Below, in pieces: positions 4,143-23,874 of a stretch of DNA of 64,000 nucleotides. The first letter of the stretch is position 1; the number at the start of each line of letters is the position of its first letter. The notes beneath the pieces were generated by a model, which ran no database searches, was not told where the DNA came from, and was given only the letters and a program-made list of their open reading frames with translations. Source of the stretch: a virus; the IMG/VR virus record IMGVR_UViG_3300006175_000002, positions 1-64,000 of that record. One strand, 5' to 3'. A program made the translations under genes and the position numbers.

Positions 4143-4636
4143 TACTCGGCTCTCCTTCGTTCGTGCTCTCGCCGGTGATGACAGGCCGAGCAGACCGCCT
4201 CGACGTCCTCGTGGTGGTCCGCGGCGTAGCCACGATGGTGGTCATATTCGTGTCGGATCTGACCTGGACCGGTTTCGTGCCCGCAGTCCATGCAAGCCAC
4301 ATCGTTGGGGGGCGGGATCTGGCCGATTTCGATCAGGTAGTTGACTCGTCGGCGGGCCTGGTGGCCGTCCCCGTCCCGCGCCGGAACGGTCCGCCTACCG
4401 GAGGGGACACGTTGCCGGGGTATGTACGCCGCCCTGCACTGTGCGTTTCGGAAGTCACGGCAGGTGGGGACCAGGCCGTCGCCTCGGCTGCGGTCTGTTG
4501 CGAACCGGTCGGCTGGATGCCAGGCCCTACAGCCCATGCACCACTTCTCGCCGGCCGCGCGTCGTCGGGTGTACTCCTCGGGGGTCACACCGATGCGGGC
4601 TGCCGCCGTTTTCAACGCTCCGGAGCCGCTACCCAC
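4142..4636 (-). CDS. HNH-like zinc-binding protein
   Basis: A 164-residue protein with a GTG start preceded by GGAGG. An N-terminal CMGCRAWHPADRF segment and a C-terminal CMDCGHETGPGQIRHEYDHH ... VCSACHHRREHERR arrangement suggest two zinc-binding units, the second resembling an HNH endonuclease fold (D-H-H with paired CxxC). It is short for a homing endonuclease. It lies directly upstream of DUF5131 with a one-base overlap. The function is inferred only from the metal-ligand pattern; it could be a structural zinc finger. Confidence 0.65.
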   Translation of the reverse strand: MGSGSGALKTAAARIGVTPEEYTRRRAAGEKWCMGCRAWHPADRFATDRSRGDGLVPTCRDFRNAQCRAAYIPRQRVPSGRRTVPARDGDGHQARRRVNYLIEIGQIPPPNDVACMDCGHETGPGQIRHEYDHHRGYAADHHEDVEAVCSACHHRREHERRRAE

Positions 4637-4742
4637 GGTCGCCTCCGACCGTGTGACGCCTGTCGATGCGACTAGGGTCGGGTTGCGGTGGTGACCCCCA
4701 CATGTTGTGGTCTACAGTGGTGGGTGTGCGGGAATGAGTCAT
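4629..4742 (-). CDS. Hypothetical 37-residue protein
   Basis: A short ATG frame with a strong ribosome binding site (AAGGAGG, about 9 bases before the start) that ends 8 bases inside the start of the HNH-like gene, the coupling style used throughout this operon. The peptide is polar and proline-rich (SRTPTTVDHNMWGSPPQP) with no recognisable domain. It may act mainly as a leader that couples translation into the HNH-like gene. Confidence 0.5.
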   Translation of the reverse strand: MTHSRTPTTVDHNMWGSPPQPDPSRIDRRHTVGGDRG

Positions 4743-5237: not shown

Positions 5238-5888
5238 TCAGCCCAGCAGTGCCGCGTCGGTGACGGTGTAGGAGCCGTGCGACACCCACACGTACCCGGT
5301 CTTCTTGGCGTACTCGACCTGGAACATTGTTGATTTCGCGACCTCGGAGCTGAATCCGTTGATCGTGCCCGCGAACGCCATGATGGGGTTGTTCCACTGG
5401 TCGCAGACTTGCGCTACTCCGGCGGTGCCGACGAATCGGTTCCGGACGGATCGCCACGCGAAGTTGACGAGGGGGATGCTGCGGTCGTTGTTGTGGATGC
5501 GCAGGTTCGCGAACTGTTGCGAGTCGGCGAACAGTGCTCCTTGGGCGTCGTCGGATACGTAGACGGTGGTGAATCCGACGGTGCGGATCTGGCTGTCGCC
5601 GCAGGTGATGAGCACCACGGATGAGTCGCCGGTCTTGTCGCCGTGGGCGTTGTAGACGTCGAATTGGTGGTCGGGGGCGAAGTCCATGCTGGCGCAGTGC
5701 GCGGAGTAGACGAGTTGCCCGTCCGGGCCGTAGTTGTAGACGGTGCCGGATGTGTGGCCGAGGGCGCGCATCGCGTCGGCGATCCAGTTCTTGGTGGATG
5801 AGCAGCCGCTCATGCTGGCCAGGAGTGCGACGGCCACGCCGACGCTGGCGATGGTGGTGGCGATTCGACGGTTCACGGTGATGTTCAT
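5238..5888 (-). CDS. Phage-encoded lipoprotein
   Basis: A 216-residue protein with an N-terminal signal (NRRIATTIASVGVAVALLAS) ending in a lipobox, LASMSGC, so Cys29 or nearby should be lipidated and the protein anchored outside the membrane. The mature part has several cysteines, aromatic-rich beta-like strands and repeated D/N residues, with no recognised domain. AGGAGGAG precedes the ATG. Phage lipoproteins sometimes block superinfection; that role is only a possibility here. It is flanked by small membrane proteins. Confidence 0.8.
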   Translation of the reverse strand: MNITVNRRIATTIASVGVAVALLASMSGCSSTKNWIADAMRALGHTSGTVYNYGPDGQLVYSAHCASMDFAPDHQFDVYNAHGDKTGDSSVVLITCGDSQIRTVGFTTVYVSDDAQGALFADSQQFANLRIHNNDRSIPLVNFAWRSVRNRFVGTAGVAQVCDQWNNPIMAFAGTINGFSSEVAKSTMFQVEYAKKTGYVWVSHGSYTVTDAALLG

Positions 5889-5916
5889 GGGGTGTGTGTT
5901 TTCTCCTCCTACGGAT

Positions 5917-5950
5917 GCCCGGCGGCGGAATGGTCGCCGGGCCCTTTTTC
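5917..5950 (+). terminator. Rightward-oriented intrinsic terminator-like hairpin
   Basis: An 8-bp stem (GCCCGGCG/CGCCGGGC) followed on the + strand by CCTTTTTC. It lies between two leftward genes, so as an intrinsic terminator it would stop antisense (rightward) transcription. Confidence 0.5.
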
Positions 5951-6155
5951 AGTGTGTTGGGCGTCGGTCAACGTGGCTGAGGGCCCAGCCGTACAACGCA
6001 CCAGCGACCACGCCGACAGCCCAGGTGACCAGTTGGCTATCAGGGTCTTTCTGCGCCCACGTGATCGGCGTGACCGTCACCAGGCCCGCGGCGGCGCCGA
6101 CGGTGATGCACCACAGCCGGCGACCGTGACCAACGGGGATGGGGGTGGCGGTCAT
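5949..6155 (-). CDS. Small membrane protein
   Basis: A 68-residue protein with two hydrophobic helices (LWCITVGAAAGLVTVTPI and VTWAVGVVAGALYGWAL) and short polar ends. The ATG overlaps the DUF2303 stop (ATGA), so it is translationally coupled to that gene. No family is recognised. It precedes the lipoprotein and another two-TM protein, forming a small membrane-protein cluster. Confidence 0.7.
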   Translation of the reverse strand: MTATPIPVGHGRRLWCITVGAAAGLVTVTPITWAQKDPDSQLVTWAVGVVAGALYGWALSHVDRRPTH

Positions 6156-19730: not shown

Positions 19731-19777
19731 GAGCACGATGGGCGGTCGGGCCAGCCGGCTCAACACCGGCTGGGCTC
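19731..19777 (+). ncRNA. tRNA-like element E0 (divergent T-arm)
   Basis: A 7-bp stem CAGCCGG/CCGGCTG closes the 7-nt loop CTCAACA, resembling a T-arm. GAGC (19731-19734) can pair with GCTC (19774-19777). The connector contains GGCG (19741-19744). AGAAAGGAGG follows directly. It is a weaker member of the E1-E7 series. Confidence 0.4.
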
Positions 19778-19797
19778 ACGAGAAAGGAGGTGCATCC

Positions 19798-19890
19798 ATG
19801 TCTAAGCACCTTTTGCTTTTCGCCGCGATCGGATTCGCGGCGCTTGGAGTCGTTCTTGCCGTCCTGGCCTACCGCTCGGCGGTGGGCTAA
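19798..19890 (+). CDS. 30-residue membrane peptide
   Basis: A peptide consisting of a single hydrophobic helix (HLLLFAAIGFAALGVVLAVL) with a short polar tail. AGAAAGGAGGTG ends a few bases before the ATG, one of the strongest ribosome binding sites in the window. It could be a small holin-like, antiholin-like or membrane-regulatory peptide; no homologue is recognised. Confidence 0.6.
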   Translation: MSKHLLLFAAIGFAALGVVLAVLAYRSAVG

Positions 19891-19948
19891 GACAATCTCG
19901 GCTGGTACATCGTTGCAGGCCAGCCGGGAGCGAAAGGAGGTATCCACT

Positions 19949-20149
19949 ATGGATATCACTGTTGTTCTCAAGGTCAAGGTCGATCTCGACGCATGGCAAC
20001 TGGAGTACGGACACGCCAACACGGCTGCCGCACTCAAGGAAGCACTCGACGACATACGGCACCCCGACTGGTACCTCCAGGGCCAGAAGTGGGACGGCCT
20101 CGGCAAGGTTGAGAGCGTCAAAGCCATGGTCGACCTCGGCCAGATCTGA
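19949..20149 (+). CDS. Hypothetical 66-residue protein
   Basis: Starts at an ATG after GAAAGGAGG. The N-terminus ITVVLKVKVDLDAWQLEYG is beta-like, followed by the helix TAAALKEALDDIRH and a short C-terminal part. It resembles small phage proteins I have seen annotated only as hypothetical. It belongs to the rightward small-gene operon. Confidence 0.7.
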   Translation: MDITVVLKVKVDLDAWQLEYGHANTAAALKEALDDIRHPDWYLQGQKWDGLGKVESVKAMVDLGQI

Positions 20150-20157
20150 GACAAAGA

Positions 20158-20203
20158 CGAGCGGTGTTGGCGCACCTGCGGGGTTCAAATCCCCGGCCGC
20201 TCG
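20158..20203 (+). ncRNA. tRNA-like element E1 (acceptor stem + T-arm)
   Basis: CGAGCGGT pairs with GCCGCTCG (8 bp, last pair U-G). A 13-nt connector containing GGCG leads to a 5-bp T-stem CGGGG/CCCCG with loop TTCAAAT, so GTTCAAATC (20183-20191) matches the tRNA T-loop consensus exactly. The 3' acceptor strand follows the T-stem without a gap, as in tRNA. There is no D-arm or anticodon arm. AAAGGAGGT starts 2 bases downstream. Confidence 0.65.
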
Positions 20204-20218
20204 CGAAAGGAGGTGGTC

Positions 20219-20554
20219 ATGTTGACCACTACCAGCATCGTTGGTGACTTCGCTTTCCGTACCATCTGCGAACGGCACGGCTTCCGAGTGTTCGTCGGCA
20301 AGGACGTTCAGTTCGCGCTGGACTACTACGAATGCCCCGGCTGCGTTGCTGAGCAGGACGCAGAGTATGCGCGTAGCTGGCAGCCGTGCTGCTCACACGC
20401 GAACACTGACTGCTGCGGGCACGACGAGGAAATGGACACGCCGCACATGCGGACGATCACGCTGGTCAGTCCGAACTACTGCGACCACCAAGCGGGCCGG
20501 GTGTGCTACTACGGTCCGTGTCGTCACCGCGAGTGTGGCGAACCGCCGTTCTGA
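20219..20554 (+). CDS. Cysteine-rich protein
   Basis: A 111-residue protein from the ATG after GAAAGGAGGTGG. The N-terminus (TTTSIVGDFAFRTICERHGF) is followed by many Cys and His: YYECPGCVAEQD, WQPCCSHANTDCCGHDEEM, NYCDHQAGRVCYYGPCRHRE. Two or more zinc sites are likely. It could be a nucleic-acid or protein-binding adaptor; no family is recognised. Confidence 0.7.
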   Translation: MLTTTSIVGDFAFRTICERHGFRVFVGKDVQFALDYYECPGCVAEQDAEYARSWQPCCSHANTDCCGHDEEMDTPHMRTITLVSPNYCDHQAGRVCYYGPCRHRECGEPPF

Positions 20555-20561
20555 AACGGCG

Positions 20562-20607
20562 GCTTCCGGTCAGGCGACCCAGCCGGTTCGAGTCCGGCGC
20601 CGGAAGC
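20562..20607 (+). ncRNA. tRNA-like element E2 (acceptor stem + T-arm)
   Basis: GCTTCCGGT pairs with GCCGGAAGC (9 bp, last pair U-G). An 11-nt connector (CAGGCGACCCA) leads to T-stem GCCGG/CCGGC with loop TTCGAGT, giving the exact tRNA motif GTTCGAGTC (20586-20594). It begins 7 bases after the previous stop codon, and GAAAGGAGGT follows immediately. Confidence 0.68.
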
Positions 20608-20626
20608 GAAAGGAGGTACCCAACTT

Positions 20627-20782
20627 ATGGATATCAACTGCCAGTGGGGTGCGTGTGAAGACCACGAGGTTGAGGCCATTGCCACTGTGTACGGCCCGGA
20701 CGAGGAGGTTCTTGCCCGGGTGTGCGCCGAGGGCGCGCGACAGGCCAGGGCCAAGGGCTTCATCGTGAAGCGCGACATCTGA
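20627..20782 (+). CDS. Hypothetical 51-residue protein
   Basis: Starts at an ATG with GAAAGGAGG upstream. It has an N-terminal CQWGACEDHEVEAIATVYGP segment and a helical LARVCAEGARQARAKGF, with three Cys and one His that may bind metal. It belongs to the rightward small-gene operon. Confidence 0.66.
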   Translation: MDINCQWGACEDHEVEAIATVYGPDEEVLARVCAEGARQARAKGFIVKRDI

Positions 20783-20834
20783 GTGACCGGCCCGCAAGGG
20801 TGGCGGCGCCGAGGGTTCAAACGCCTCGGCACTC
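20781..20834 (+). ncRNA. tRNA-like element E3 (variant T-arm)
   Basis: GAGTG (20781-20785) can pair with CACTC (20830-20834). A 7-bp stem GCCGAGG/CCTCGGC encloses GTTCAAACG, which keeps GTTCAAAC but has G in place of the final C. The connector holds GGCG (20802-20805). GAAAGGAGG follows 2 bases later. It overlaps the stop codon of the preceding gene. Confidence 0.55.
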
Positions 20835-20852
20835 GCGAAAGGAGGTCAACAC

Positions 20853-21038
20853 ATGGCCACCAGCAAGACAACAACCTACCGGGTCCAGACCTCTCCCAAG
20901 CCCGGTGAATGGCAAGACTGCGGCGAGGAGTTCAGCACGCCAGACGCGGCACGCATGCACAGCTACGAACTGATCCGCACCGGCGTCACCGAAGCCTCCC
21001 GCGTTGTGGAGCGCGTCGAGCGCGTATTGCCTCGTTAG
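20853..21038 (+). CDS. Hypothetical 61-residue protein
   Basis: An ATG preceded by GAAAGGAGGTC. The sequence SKTTTYRVQTSPKPGEWQDC reads as a small beta-sheet, followed by a helix (DAARMHSYELIRTGVTEASR), a shape seen in small phage or plasmid proteins of unknown role. Confidence 0.68.
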   Translation: MATSKTTTYRVQTSPKPGEWQDCGEEFSTPDAARMHSYELIRTGVTEASRVVERVERVLPR

Positions 21039-21101
21039 ATCCCGAACCGGCCCGGCGGTGAATCCGGGGCACCTACCTCCGAGCACGGGTGTGCACGACC
21101 G

Positions 21102-21156
21102 GTACCGGCCCACGGGTCGGCCGGGAGAGGGCGAGTTCGAGTCTCGCCGGGGGTAC
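21102..21156 (+). ncRNA. tRNA-like element E4 (acceptor stem + T-arm)
   Basis: T-stem GCGAG/CTCGC with loop TTCGAGT gives GTTCGAGTC (21135-21143), an exact tRNA T-loop match. GTACC (21102-21106) pairs with GGTAC (21152-21156), possibly extended by CCC/GGG across a 2-nt bulge. The connector is longer (about 24 nt) and lacks GGCG. GAAAGGAGGT follows immediately. Confidence 0.58.
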
Positions 21157-21171
21157 GAAAGGAGGTACCGC

Positions 21172-21324
21172 ATGAGTACCGTGAATGACGACGAGTTCGA
21201 GAGCCTGGACTACGCCGACGAAGACGCAGACCACCTCTGCGACGACTGTGGTCACTTCCATAGCGGCGGGGAATGCCCCGACCCGAACGAACCGTGCGGC
21301 GACTACCGCTGCTGCATCAACTAG
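21172..21324 (+). CDS. Acidic zinc-finger-like protein
   Basis: A 50-residue, strongly acidic protein (DDEFESLDYADEDADH) followed by CDDCGHFHSGGECPDPNEPC and a terminal CC pair, a likely zinc knuckle. The acidic N-terminus could mimic DNA. GAAAGGAGG precedes the ATG. No family is recognised. Confidence 0.66.
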   Translation: MSTVNDDEFESLDYADEDADHLCDDCGHFHSGGECPDPNEPCGDYRCCIN

Positions 21325-21335
21325 GGGGGCGTCAC

Positions 21336-21503
21336 ATGGTCGAGTTTTTCCGGTCGGCACCTGCGTGGCTGATCTACCAGGTGGCCCACCACCCGCAGCA
21401 GACCGTGGGCGTGATCGCGATTGTGGTGGAAGCAGCCGCCGCCCTCGCGGTCATCCGTTGCGTGGCAGCGTTGCTGGCCAAGCGGCGCCGAGAACGACTC
21501 TGA
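21336..21503 (+). CDS. Single-pass membrane protein
   Basis: A 55-residue protein: an N-terminal amphipathic stretch, then a membrane helix (VGVIAIVVEAAAALAVIRCV) and a very basic C-terminal tail (KRRRERL). The ribosome binding site is weak (GGGGGG). Topology suggests the tail is cytoplasmic. Confidence 0.64.
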   Translation: MVEFFRSAPAWLIYQVAHHPQQTVGVIAIVVEAAAALAVIRCVAALLAKRRRERL

Positions 21504-21581
21504 ATCAAGGCGGTGGCCCGACGTGAGCCGGGCCGCGCGCCTTGACCGCCGGACAGGTTGCCGGCGGCAGGAGGAGGCAAG
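21504..21581 (+). other. Intergenic structured region
   Basis: TCAAGGCG pairs with CGCCTTGA (8 bp) around an inner GGCCCG/CGGGCC stem; a second hairpin, CCGCCGG/CCGGCGG, follows before GGAGGAGG. No T-loop consensus is present. Confidence 0.4.
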
Positions 21582-22088
21582 ATGTTTGACGAGGATGTGG
21601 AAGGCATCGACATCTTCCGGTCCAGTTCCATGGGTCAGGTCATCGCCGGGGCGCTCGGCTCCGACAACCCGTTCAACCGGCCCCGCCGGCGAACGGTCGA
21701 CCCGGTCGACGCCCGGGCCGCGCAGATCCTGCGCGAGCGGGCCGACGCCGACGAGGCGGCCCGCGTCGAAGTCGAAGCCCAGCGGAAGATCGCCGAGGTT
21801 GAGGCGCTCGGCGCCGACCAGTTGCCCGACGGGGCGGTTGTCGCGTTCACCAAGCAGCACACCGTACGGGGCCACGCGTTTTCGTACGCCGCGATCTACA
21901 TTGCCGGCCACTGGTACCTCACCGGCGGCAAGCATGGCGGGGCGAAGAAGACGAACGAGGAGTTCTGCCTGTGGTTGTTGTCTGGGCAGGGCTTCAACGA
22001 CTGGCAGGTGCTGCGCGGCGCACCCGAGGCGCCGCACGACGTTGTACCAGCTTCGTACCACGACAACGACGACGAGGAGCCGTTCTGA
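21582..22088 (+). CDS. Hypothetical protein
   Basis: A 168-residue protein after GGAGGAGG. An acidic N-terminus and basic linker (NRPRRRTVDPVDARAAQIL) lead into a long helix (ADADEAARVEVEAQRKIAEV) and a C-terminal beta-like domain (VVAFTKQHTVRGHAFSYAAI, GHWYLTGGKHGGAKKTNEEF). It is the largest soluble protein of the rightward operon apart from the last gene; no family is recognised. Confidence 0.7.
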   Translation: MFDEDVEGIDIFRSSSMGQVIAGALGSDNPFNRPRRRTVDPVDARAAQILRERADADEAARVEVEAQRKIAEVEALGADQLPDGAVVAFTKQHTVRGHAFSYAAIYIAGHWYLTGGKHGGAKKTNEEFCLWLLSGQGFNDWQVLRGAPEAPHDVVPASYHDNDDEEPF

Positions 22089-22134
22089 CCTGACCGGCCT
22101 GGGGAGGCTCCGGTCAATCCGGCGAGCACACGGA

Positions 22135-22191
22135 GCGCGTACGGCGTCCATGGCGTCGTACGGTCGGGGTCAGGACCCGACGCCGGAGCGC
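22135..22191 (+). ncRNA. tRNA-like element E7 (divergent)
   Basis: T-stem TCGGG/CCCGA with 7-nt loop GTCAGGA; CGGCG and GCGC (22135-22146) pair with CGCCG and GCGC (22181-22191) directly after the T-stem. GGCG lies in the connector (22152-22155). The loop lacks the TTC consensus, so this is a weaker member. Confidence 0.4.
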
Positions 22192-22217
22192 ACACAACAA
22201 CAGAAAGAGGGTGATGC

Positions 22218-22364
22218 ATGGCTGGCAAGGGGCCACGTAACACGGTCGGCGACAGTCGACCTCCGGGCCGGGACCGAACCGGTCAGGACATGGGCCAACC
22301 GGGAACACCCACCACGGGCAACCCGACCGGGCGCTACCCATTCCCGGGCACGTCGAGTAGGTAA
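22218..22364 (+). CDS. Gly/Pro-rich 48-residue peptide
   Basis: The ATG is preceded by AAAGAGGG. The peptide is Gly, Pro, Arg and Thr rich (KGPRNTVGDSRPPGRDRTG, PGTPTTGNPTGRYPFPG) and probably disordered. Base composition and position fit the operon, but coding status rests on the start site alone. Confidence 0.5.
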   Translation: MAGKGPRNTVGDSRPPGRDRTGQDMGQPGTPTTGNPTGRYPFPGTSSR

Positions 22365-22435
22365 GCCGTCGAACGGCTTCCATGACCCGCCACGGGGGGG
22401 CGGGTTGTGGTCCCCGTTTGAAGGAGGAACGGCAC

Positions 22436-22771
22436 ATGGCTCAGGAACTTCGTTTCACCGGCGACCAGCTTGAGTACCGGGTCGGTCGGATCACCATCAC
22501 CCTCCAGTGGGTTCGGGAGGGTGCGTACAACGTCACCGGCTACCAGGGCACGCTCCGGCTGGAGAGGCTTTGCAAGTCGTGGCCCACTGAGGATGAGGCG
22601 CGCGGGTGGGCACGGATGTGTGTCGCGGACGCCCGGTTCGAGCAGAACATGCCGGCACTGTGCGGCTGCCGGGGGGTCGGTTGGATTCCCCTGGACCGCA
22701 CGTGGGCACCGTGCATGGTCTGCAACAGTCGGGGCGGGCGCATTCCGGCACCGCCGGTTGCGGCTGGCTAG
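22436..22771 (+). CDS. Hypothetical zinc-knuckle protein
   Basis: A 111-residue protein after AAGGAGGAA. N-terminal beta-strands (LEYRVGRITITLQWVREGAY) lead to a C-terminal CGCRGVGWIPLDRTWAPCMV with a further Cys, a probable zinc knuckle. The function is unknown. Confidence 0.7.
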   Translation: MAQELRFTGDQLEYRVGRITITLQWVREGAYNVTGYQGTLRLERLCKSWPTEDEARGWARMCVADARFEQNMPALCGCRGVGWIPLDRTWAPCMVCNSRGGRIPAPPVAAG

Positions 22772-22864
22772 TTCGCAGCGGGCCACGAACACGCCTTCAC
22801 GGGTGGTCGTGGCCGGCTGGATCTCAGCCAGAGAGTTGGGACCGAAGCAGGAGGAGAAACACGC
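22772..22864 (+). other. Intergenic hairpins
   Basis: An 8-bp stem GGCCACGA/TCGTGGCC (22781-22814) and a 5-bp stem GGCTG/CAGCC (22815-22829) precede the GGAGGAG site. No T-loop consensus is present. Confidence 0.4.
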
Positions 22865-23191
22865 ATGGGAATGATCAAAAAGGTGCAGGACCTGGCGGAA
22901 GGCGACCAGTTCGCTCAGAACCAGACGCTTTATCGGGTGATGGAGATTGCCGTCGGCGAAACGATAGTCGGCGTGACAACCACGTACCGCGCCGAGGCGG
23001 CACAGCAATTTTACACCGTCCATGCGACGTACGAGGTTGACACAGAGGTGTACCTGCCGAACGTCGACGCGCACAACGCTCCGCCGCAGCCGCCCGTTTC
23101 GACCGCCCGGGTGGATGACTTCCTCCGGGAGCACACGGGGCAGGCCATCCGGCGCGAGCCGGGGCACATCCCGACCCAGTTCCCTCAGTAG
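22865..23191 (+). CDS. Hypothetical protein
   Basis: A 108-residue protein after GCAGGAGGAG. It is mostly beta-like (GDQFAQNQTLYRVMEI, YTVHATYEVDTEVYLPN) with a Pro-rich segment and a short C-terminal helix (ARVDDFLREHTG). It may be a small beta-barrel; no family is recognised. Confidence 0.68.
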   Translation: MGMIKKVQDLAEGDQFAQNQTLYRVMEIAVGETIVGVTTTYRAEAAQQFYTVHATYEVDTEVYLPNVDAHNAPPQPPVSTARVDDFLREHTGQAIRREPGHIPTQFPQ

Positions 23192-23269
23192 TTCCGCACC
23201 GCACACAGCGGGGCCCCGTCCCGTACGGGCCCACGCCGTGGCAGTCCGGCCAACCGAAGGGAGCACCAC

Positions 23270-23359
23270 ATGAGCAACCAGCAGGACCAGCAGCAGCCCG
23301 CCACAACCCAGCCGGAGCCGCAACGCCCCGACGGGTACAAGGGCAAGCACCGCCGCTGA
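23270..23359 (+). CDS. 29-residue Gln/Pro-rich peptide
   Basis: The ATG follows GAAGGGAGC. The peptide (SNQQDQQQPATTQPEPQ, then DGYKGKHRR) is disordered with a basic end. It ends just before two tRNA-like elements. It is short, and its coding status is supported only by the start site and operon position. Confidence 0.42.
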   Translation: MSNQQDQQQPATTQPEPQRPDGYKGKHRR

Positions 23360-23411
23360 ACGGTTCCCGCCCCGCCGGTACCTGCATTACCTGCCCACCG
23401 GGTTACAGTGG

Positions 23412-23460
23412 GCGCTCAGTCGAGGCGAAACACAGCCGGTTCGAGTCCGGCGCTGAGCGC
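23412..23460 (+). ncRNA. tRNA-like element E5 (acceptor stem + T-arm)
   Basis: GCGCTCAGT pairs with GCTGAGCGC (9 bp, last pair U-G). A 14-nt connector (CGAGGCGAAACACA) leads to T-stem GCCGG/CCGGC with loop TTCGAGT, giving GTTCGAGTC (23439-23447). The T-arm is identical to that of E2 although the acceptor stem differs completely, so the fold appears conserved while the stem sequence covaries. Confidence 0.68.
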
Positions 23461-23462
23461 GA

Positions 23463-23529
23463 GGGAAACGCGCTTGTAGGCGTAAGCGCCGCGACGGCGG
23501 AAGCCGGGATCGACACCCGGGCGTTTCCC
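23463..23529 (+). ncRNA. tRNA-like element E6 (mini-cloverleaf)
   Basis: A 9-bp perfect acceptor-like stem GGGAAACGC/GCGTTTCCC. Inside it lie a 4-bp D-arm-like hairpin (GCTT, loop GTAGGCGT, AAGC), a 4-bp hairpin with a 3-nt loop (GCCG CGA CGGC) in the anticodon-arm position, and a 5-bp T-stem CCGGG/CCCGG with 7-nt loop ATCGACA. It is 67 nt, with no usable anticodon loop and no encoded CCA. It lies 2 bases after E5. Confidence 0.6.
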
Positions 23530-23608
23530 CCCTCACCTCTCCTTCTCCGAAATCGTCAAGCCACGTCCGCGGGGGACGTTACTCGACGTCCACGAGAGGA
23601 GAACCACA

Positions 23609-23785
23609 ATGGGTGACGTAGTGACGATGTCGACGGTGAACACGCTTTCCCCGATGTCCCCGTTCGACCACGCACCAATCATCCTTACCGGAATCCACCT
23701 GCGCAACGACGCGGTCATCGAGCCGCACGAGCGGTGCGAGTTCCTCAACACCCCGTGCGACCAGCCGGAGTGCCCGGCGCTCTGA
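23609..23785 (+). CDS. Hypothetical 58-residue protein
   Basis: The ATG follows GAGAGGAGAA. The peptide contains PFDHAPIILTGIHLRNDAVI and a C-terminal CEFLNTPCDQPECPAL with three cysteines. It is placed after the tandem tRNA-like elements E5 and E6. The function is unknown. Confidence 0.6.
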   Translation: MGDVVTMSTVNTLSPMSPFDHAPIILTGIHLRNDAVIEPHERCEFLNTPCDQPECPAL

Positions 23786-23874
23786 GCACCGCCCATGGCC
23801 GACCGTCCCCCACCCCGGGGCCGGTCGACCGTGGGCCCCGCTCAGGGGAACCTACTAGCTCCGAGGAGGAGCCC

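What the first reader, a model, noticed from the sequence alone, without database searches (positions are those of the whole stretch)
19731..23529. A family of tRNA-like RNA elements punctuates the rightward operon
In seven intergenic sites of this small-gene operon the sequence folds into an acceptor-like stem, a short connector and a 5-bp stem with a 7-nt loop, the 3' acceptor strand following the T-stem directly as in tRNA; an eighth site (E3) is a variant with a 7-bp stem and 9-nt loop. In four (E1, E2, E4, E5) the loop is GTTCRANNC, the exact tRNA T-loop consensus. The stem sequences differ completely while the fold persists (E2 and E5 share the T-arm, not the acceptor stem), which points to selection on structure. 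There is no anticodon arm except a rudiment in E6, so these are not ordinary tRNA genes. I know of no described phage RNA class with this layout.
Basis: partly seen in the sequence, partly recalled or inferred. Interest (0 to 1): 0.95.

Follow-up and report, generated by a model that had tools for sequence, protein, structure and literature searches.

The report
tRNA-half elements between phage genes
Between the small genes of this phage, and between the genes of several unrelated, long-cultured phages of Streptomyces, Mycobacterium and Gordonia, the messenger RNA carries about 40-base copies of the top half of a transfer RNA that nobody appears to have annotated, and they probably mark where the host's tRNA-trimming enzyme cuts the long message into separate ones.

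Summary
The core observation is real, though not at all eight sites. Three elements are clean (20159-20202, 20562-20607, 23412-23460): a 7-9-bp acceptor-like stem, an 11-14-nt connector and a 5-bp T-arm with TTCRANN loop. A fourth has a consensus T-arm but a poor acceptor (21102-21156); 23463-23529 is fuller, with D-like and rudimentary anticodon arms; 20798-20834 is a variant; 19731 and 19897 are weak. None is an ARAGORN tRNA or a gathering-level Rfam hit. The operon itself has no relatives in the collections searched. The same layout recurs in independent phages: 11 copies on one strand of a complete 61-kb IMG/VR phage, and cultured Streptomyces phages Joe, Alsaber and phiScoe55, Mycobacterium phages Oaker, Konstantine and LittleE, and Gordonia phages Trine and MakoManhole. 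In five of these, 41 of 43 T-arms lie in intergenic gaps and 40 of 52 gaps hold one. Twenty-eight distinct copies show strong covariation in both stems, plus two D-loop/T-loop-like contacts. So this is a structured RNA class mimicking the acceptor-elbow half of tRNA. The likeliest role is RNase P cutting of polycistronic phage mRNA, as in mitochondrial tRNA punctuation; cleavage is inferred, not shown. No earlier description was found.

The parts
19731..19777 (+). weak/variant site before the first small ORF: GAGC/GCTC outer stem (4 bp), 8-bp inner stem, loop CTCAACA, then GAGAAAGGAGG
   Evidence: fold; no T-loop consensus; counted as doubtful
19897..19930 (+). simple hairpin (9 bp, 14-nt loop) directly before GCGAAAGGAGG; no T-arm
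   Evidence: fold (z -2.6); not a member of the class by structure
20159..20202 (+). Element A: acceptor GAGCGGT/GCCGCTC, connector GTTGGCGCACCTG (holds GG), T-arm CGGGG-TTCAAAT-CCCCG, followed by GCGAAAGGAGG
   Evidence: best lax Rfam match mascRNA-menRNA, E 0.023, below gathering
20562..20607 (+). Element B: acceptor GCTTCCGGT/GCCGGAAGC (9 pairs), connector CAGGCGACCCA, T-arm GCCGG-TTCGAGT-CCGGC, followed by GAAAGGAGG
   Evidence: top hit in the whole 103-kb record of model R1, which was trained only on other phages (E 0.019)
20798..20834 (+). Element C, variant: outer stem GGGT/ACTC, 7-bp stem GCCGAGG/CCTCGGC, 9-nt loop GTTCAAACG, followed by GCGAAAGGAGG
   Evidence: sequence and (5.4 kcal/mol above MFE)
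21102..21156 (+). Element D: T-arm GGCGAG-TTCGAGT-CTCGCC with a weak acceptor GTACC/GGTAC and a long connector, followed by GAAAGGAGG
   Evidence: tRNA-like fold 8.8 kcal/mol above MFE
23412..23460 (+). Element E: acceptor GCGCTCAGT/GCTGAGCGC (9 pairs), connector CGAGGCGAAACACA, T-arm GCCGG-TTCGAGT-CCGGC
   Evidence: third-ranked hit of model R1 in the 103-kb record (E 0.11)
23463..23529 (+). Element F: 9-bp acceptor GGGAAACGC/GCGTTTCCC, D-like arm GCGCTT-GTAGGCGT-AAGCGC, small arm CGC-GACG-GCG, T-arm CCGGG-ATCGACA-CCCGG
   Evidence: MFE fold; loop lacks T54
19798..23785 (+). operon of about 13 small ORFs in whose gaps the elements lie; no Pfam family for the operon ORFs scanned
   Evidence: gap table; Pfam; PHROG hit for the 21582-22088 ORF, unknown function

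Best explanation
The elements are cis-acting mRNA structures that copy the top half of a tRNA: the acceptor/T-arm stack plus the D-loop GG that docks on the T-loop to form the elbow, with no D-stem and no anticodon arm. They sit at gene junctions of polycistronic early phage mRNAs. Most likely the host RNase P, which measures exactly the elbow-to-acceptor-end distance, cuts at the 5' side of each element (possibly with a second cut on the 3' side), so that one long transcript becomes separate gene-sized mRNAs. In the window the remaining stem lies directly before the Shine-Dalgarno sequence GAAAGGAGG, giving each downstream message a structured, protected 5' end. Shown here: recurrence, genomic position, co-direction with the genes, covariation of both stems, the GG and elbow contacts. 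Inferred: that RNase P cuts, and what the cut is for.
For: Window: four consensus T-arms at gene junctions (P about 1e-5). Model R1, built without any window sequence, ranks element B first and E third in the 103-kb record, which also holds 33 real tRNAs. G008, a complete phage with a 123-bp terminal repeat: 12 scanner hits on the gene strand (0.7 expected by Markov control), 11 of them good elements, and only 3 hits on the other strand, at the chance level of 2.7. Cultured phages: Oaker 9 hits (0.2 expected), Konstantine 8 (0.4), Joe 8 (0.2), Alsaber 7 (0.0), phiScoe55 6 (0.0), 0-1 on the other strand; 41 of 43 T-arms intergenic, 40 of 52 gaps of at least 50 nt hold one. When only the T-arm is required, 50 of 54 have an acceptor in one fixed frame, against 7 of 432 in shifted frames. 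28 distinct gapless copies: 98.6% of cells paired, 11 of 13 pairs with double changes, covariation 0.608 against 0.162 shuffled, 0/500. Contacts not used for selection: GG near the start of the connector in 17 of 17 (p 0.0004; one of these, L106, was later dropped as an attachment site); connector-T-loop pair A-U/G-C/C-G/G-U in 27 of 28; base after GG with loop base 6, Fisher 2e-9. An orthologous gap in Joe and Alsaber differs by four double changes that all keep pairing. R and C follow the acceptor in 36 of 38 copies, like R73-C74 of a tRNA. Bacterial RNase P RNA cleaves hairpins made only of acceptor stem, T-stem and T-loop, and RNase P measures from the elbow (PMC11143913, PMC4919913). No U-run follows the elements (1 of 54).
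Against: No cleavage, RNA-seq or probing data were available. The window operon has no relatives, so the window copies themselves are untested by comparison; portal relatives share the structural genes but not this operon. Model R2 (cultured phages) matches the window copies only in the T-arm. Elements C and D fold poorly as tRNA-like. Helix covariation is partly helped by choosing copies with complete stems, and copies within one phage are not independent. In G008 the ribosome-binding site lies well downstream of most elements, so the direct junction to the Shine-Dalgarno sequence is not general. No full CCA follows the elements.
Confidence: 0.5

Rival explanations
1. The elements are road-blocks: the compact elbow fold stops an exonuclease (RNase J from the 5' side or PNPase from the 3' side), so each gene keeps its own stable mRNA end without RNase P being involved.
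For: Position at most gene junctions and, in Konstantinevirus, a second stem-loop directly after most elements. Elbow contacts are kept, which a simple hairpin would not need.
Against: The R-C dinucleotide after the acceptor and the T-loop to stem-end distance of about 11-14 bp match the tRNA-processing ruler better than a road-block needs.
Confidence: 0.15
2. The elements are binding sites for a tRNA-binding protein or ribosome-associated factor (EF-Tu, a synthetase, a modification enzyme or a phage protein) that regulates translation of the downstream gene.
For: In the window the element abuts the Shine-Dalgarno sequence at a constant distance. Multiple tandem copies stand in the leader of one gene in G020 and G019.
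Against: In G008 and in the cultured phages the ribosome-binding site lies farther downstream, so a direct translational switch is not the common denominator.
Confidence: 0.15
3. They are intrinsic transcription terminators or attenuators without U-tracts, as I recall being reported for the phiC31 early region.
For: GC-rich hairpins at the end of each gene; actinophage early regions have been said to carry terminators lacking poly-U (own recollection, not found in the held library).
Against: No U-run after the elements (1 of 54). A terminator does not need a T-loop consensus, GG and elbow covariation. The phiC31 stretch scanned shows no convincing element and its genome has no R2 match. Gaps of 80 nt leave little room for a promoter after each element.
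Confidence: 0.1
4. They are decayed tRNA genes, attachment sites or a mobile DNA repeat, not functional RNAs.
For: The phage carries 33 tRNA genes. One candidate (L106) is indeed a tRNA 3' end next to an apparent integrase end.
Against: Acceptor stems are kept by double changes, copies are all on the gene strand, and each phage has many different stems with the same elbow.
Confidence: 0.05

Closest known systems
Plant mitochondrial t-elements and mitochondrial tRNA punctuation (Ojala 1981; Forner 2007, as cited in PMC8003010)
   Same: tRNA-like structures between protein genes of polycistronic RNA; the proposed role is endonucleolytic punctuation by RNase P/Z
   Different: Phage, not organelle; reduced to the acceptor-elbow half with a 9-14-nt connector; many copies per operon; cleavage not yet shown
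mascRNA / menRNA (RF01684, MALAT1 and NEAT1 3' ends)
   Same: tRNA-like element embedded in a long RNA and excised by RNase P and RNase Z (PMC12941219); lax Rfam match to element A, E 0.023
   Different: Below the gathering score (26.7 against 42.5 bits); mascRNA keeps more arms, is a single copy at a 3' end and is eukaryotic
RNase P minimal substrates (acceptor stem + T-stem + T-loop hairpins, McClain and Altman; PMC11143913)
   Same: Same minimal architecture and similar length of the coaxial stack
   Different: Synthetic substrates; here natural, and the D-loop GG is retained
Bacterial tRNA-like Y RNAs (YrlA)
   Same: T-arm-bearing tRNA mimic in phage and bacterial genomes; this phage encodes a Ro60/TROVE protein with T-arm motifs upstream
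   Different: The operon elements are multi-copy, lie between other genes and lack a long Ro-binding stem; relation not tested
Ordinary phage tRNA arrays
   Same: T-arm and acceptor consensus; 33 tRNAs in this phage
   Different: No anticodon arm, connector 9-14 nt instead of about 40

Membership tests
tRNA (RF00005) | cloverleaf with anticodon arm, detectable by ARAGORN or Rfam | tested here: not met
   0 tRNAs in the window; no Rfam gathering hit; no anticodon arm in A-E
tRNA (RF00005) | acceptor stem continuous with a 5-bp T-stem and TTCRANN loop | tested here: met
   A, B, E; cultured phages
mascRNA-menRNA (RF01684) | score at or above the curated gathering threshold | tested here: not met
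   26.7 bits against 42.5, element A only
t-elements / tRNA punctuation | tRNA-like fold at gene junctions of polycistronic RNA | tested here: met
   (position and covariation; transcription itself not measured)
t-elements / tRNA punctuation | endonucleolytic cleavage by RNase P and/or RNase Z | not testable with these tools
   needs 5'/3' end mapping or in vitro cleavage
RNase P minimal substrate | acceptor stem + T-stem + T-loop stacked to about 12 bp, with R73-C74 3' of the stem | tested here: met
   stack of 11-14 bp by sequence; R-C after the acceptor in 36 of 38 copies
Intrinsic terminator | GC-rich hairpin followed by a U-run | tested here: not met
   TTTT within about 20 nt in 1 of 54
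YrlA Y RNA | tRNA-like module joined to a Ro60-binding stem | not tested
   no Y RNA model was built; the operon elements lie about 65 kb from the TROVE gene

The most novel reading that the evidence does not exclude
Phages of actinobacteria, and probably others, use tRNA punctuation: RNase P cuts polycistronic phage mRNA at tRNA top-half mimics placed at most gene junctions. It would be a bacterial-virus counterpart of mitochondrial tRNA punctuation, present but unannotated in phages that have been in GenBank for years.
Probability: 0.5. Interest if true: 0.92.

Novelty: new variant of a known kind. Interest (0 to 1): 0.86.

Why it matters
It is a multi-copy structured RNA class that tRNA finders, Rfam and GenBank annotation all miss, in phages that are grown routinely in teaching and research laboratories. 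If RNase P does cut at these elements, it explains how phage early operons of many tiny genes are divided into separate messages, shows tRNA punctuation outside organelles, and gives natural minimal RNase P substrates. The sequences, positions and predicted cut sites are specific enough to be tested directly in Streptomyces or M. smegmatis laboratory strains.

Tried and rejected
Operon relatives: blastn against phages and peptide-pattern scans of IMG/VR and genomes with operon proteins found none; one search used a wrong frame. Portal relatives share structure genes but not the operon; a portal scan of bacterial genomes found none. L106 looked like an element but is a tRNA 3' end with ACCA beside an apparent integrase end; it was dropped, although it was still counted. 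The L325 family upstream of a structural gene (GGGTAAGC + T-loop-like hairpin + GGGCA, sometimes permuted) is conserved but was judged a different family. Large ordinary tRNA arrays in G016, G025, G026 and G027 were separated from the class. MAFFT alignment of mixed connector lengths misplaced the acceptor, so gapless sets were used for models. Model R2 does not match the window elements over their full length. Vardy and CaiB intergenic repeats (PMC9671010, PMC9302106) were read as possible earlier reports; they are promoter-like or other motifs. Camvirus paper PMC10656467 does not mention tRNA, hairpins or intergenic repeats. phiC31 and VWB stretches scanned as controls show no convincing elements.
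Full report
1. What was checked. The window is the first 64 kb of a 103,389-base virus record whose ends repeat over 110 bases, so it is probably a complete genome. It carries 33 ordinary tRNA genes at 74.5-77.8 kb, outside the window. ARAGORN finds no tRNA in the window and Rfam no family at gathering score. In the operon at 19.8-23.8 kb, four GTTCRANNC T-arms with 5-bp stems occur. Whole-record shuffles give about 3.4 per strand, so four in 3.8 kb has a probability of about 1e-5. Elements A (20159-20202), B (20562-20607) and E (23412-23460) have complete acceptor stems of 7-9 pairs across connectors of 13, 11 and 14 nt. D (21102-21156) has the T-arm but a weak acceptor; C (20798-20834) is a variant; F (23463-23529) folds with D-like, small middle and T arms. 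The first two sites, 19731 and 19897, are plain or weak hairpins. In A, B and D exactly 14 nt separate the T-loop from GAAAGGAGG, and the sequence allows the same reading for C.

2. The elements in other phages. Thirty-six had a fully paired T-stem; 21 of these were ordinary tRNAs and 15 were not. One led to G008, a complete 61-kb phage with a 123-bp terminal repeat. Its gene strand has 12 scanner hits against 0.7 expected, of which 11 are good elements; the other strand has 3, against 2.7 expected. Typical copies read GACCCCG-agcggtcacag-CGCGG-ttcgact-CCGCG-c-CGGGGTC. A second scan added phages G017, G018, G019, G020, G021, G022, G023 and G024. In G020 and G019 several copies stand in tandem in the leader of one gene.

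3. Cultured, annotated phages. Homologues of that gene, and a short blastn hit of one element, led to GenBank phages. Streptomyces phages Joe, Alsaber and phiScoe55, Mycobacterium phages Oaker, Konstantine and LittleE, prophage prophiBWHA-1 and Gordonia phages Trine and MakoManhole all carry the elements; in the short blastn hits no annotated feature lies under the match. In five of these loci, 41 of 43 T-arms lie in gaps between annotated genes although gaps are only 11-30% of the sequence, and 40 of 52 gaps of at least 50 nt hold one. A covariance model from these copies, R2, finds 47 matches at E <= 1e-3 in seven cultured phages and prophages (many of them training copies) and 17 in four IMG/VR phages that were not in the training set, always on one strand within a phage. 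Trine and MakoManhole, whose copies have a 6-bp acceptor, fall below that threshold. Optimus, Mattes, phiC31, VWB, PIS136, GMA1, Medea1 and wV8 have none.

4. Selection on structure. Twenty-eight distinct copies align without gaps over 40 columns. 98.6% of cells are paired, 11 of 13 pairs change on both sides, and the covariation score is 0.608 against 0.162 in shuffles and at most 0.126 in slid versions. These copies were chosen for complete stems, so two tests avoid that choice. First, when only the T-arm is required, 50 of 54 have an acceptor in one fixed frame, against 7 of 432 in shifted frames. Second, contacts that were never selected: GG occurs in every connector of 17 copies found without using it (p 0.0004), at connector position 2-4 in 16 (0 of 5000 shuffles); one of the 17, L106, later proved to be an attachment site. 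A connector base pairs with the last T-loop base in 27 of 28 copies, as A-U, G-C, C-G or once G-U. The base after GG goes with loop base 6 (C with G, U with C or U; Fisher 2e-9, not corrected for relatedness). In tRNA the GG is G18-G19 of the D-loop, which docks on the T-loop. The element is thus the acceptor-elbow half of tRNA without D-stem or anticodon arm. At the orthologous gap before the HNH gene, Joe and Alsaber differ by two double changes in the acceptor, one in the T-stem and one in the elbow pair, all compensating (sequences).

5. Does the window belong to this class? Model R1, built from six copies of G008, G017, G024 and L006 and none of the window, ranks element B first (E 0.019) and E third (E 0.11) in the whole 103-kb record, among 33 real tRNAs. 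The connectors of A, B and E hold GG. R2 matches the window copies only in the T-arm, probably because their acceptors are longer. The window copies are best seen as a longer-stemmed variant. Direct comparison at their own junctions was not possible: no relative of the operon was found.

6. How it most likely works. Bacterial RNase P RNA cleaves model hairpins made of acceptor stem, T-stem and T-loop (PMC11143913), and RNase P measures from the tRNA elbow to the acceptor end (PMC4919913). The elements supply exactly those features, plus a purine and C after the acceptor in 36 of 38 copies, as at R73-C74. The closest Rfam family to element A, although below its threshold, is mascRNA, which RNase P and RNase Z excise from MALAT1 (PMC12941219). 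Plant mitochondria use tRNA-like t-elements as cleavage signals between genes (PMC8003010). The proposal is that host RNase P cuts 5' of each element and turns one long early transcript into separate messages; in the window the leftover stem abuts the Shine-Dalgarno sequence. Cleavage is inferred. Rivals are an exonuclease road-block, a protein-binding regulatory site and a terminator; the last is disfavoured by the lack of U-runs (1 of 54) and by the elbow covariation.

7. Novelty. No Rfam family covers the elements, and full-text searches of open-access papers found no description; papers outside that library were not searched. As an RNA family it appears undescribed; as an idea it is a variant of tRNA mimicry and tRNA punctuation.

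Noticed in passing
G000 87357-88991 (L005:3357-4991), outside the window: Ro60/TROVE gene (Pfam TROVE 1.3e-19), with T-arm-like motifs at 87053 and 87219 just upstream: candidate tRNA-like Y RNAs. Portal relatives G028, G033 and G034 also have the gene, with T-arms nearby.
   Followed up: partly
G000 74.5-77.8 kb (L004): Array of 33 ARAGORN tRNA genes covering most amino acids.
   Followed up: no
L265 minus strand 5500-6100; L266 minus strand 4230-4640: Leaders of a conserved gene (MRIEMIGTAPLLMHN...) hold tandem mini tRNA-like elements separated by NNGGC repeats; the Escherichia phage wV8 homologue has a GGT-repeat leader without T-arms.
   Followed up: partly
L325, L327, L329, L330, L337, L388, L391, L393, upstream of a TNFPHGI-type structural gene: Conserved GGGTAAGC + 5-bp hairpin with TNNRANN loop + GGGCA; the TGTCCC partner lies 5' in some phages and 3' in others, like a circular permutation; no Rfam match at gathering.
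   Followed up: partly
Oaker and Konstantine gaps (L408, L409): Most tRNA-like elements are followed by a second stem-loop such as GAATCAG-CACAAGA-CTGATTC before the next gene.
   Followed up: no
G000 65247-68339: Terminase ORF that by eye appears to be interrupted by an intein-like insertion (translation).
   Followed up: no
window 23786-23874, 22365-22435, 21504-21581: Other gaps of the operon hold strong plain hairpins (z -3.3 to -4.0) without a T-arm.
   Followed up: no
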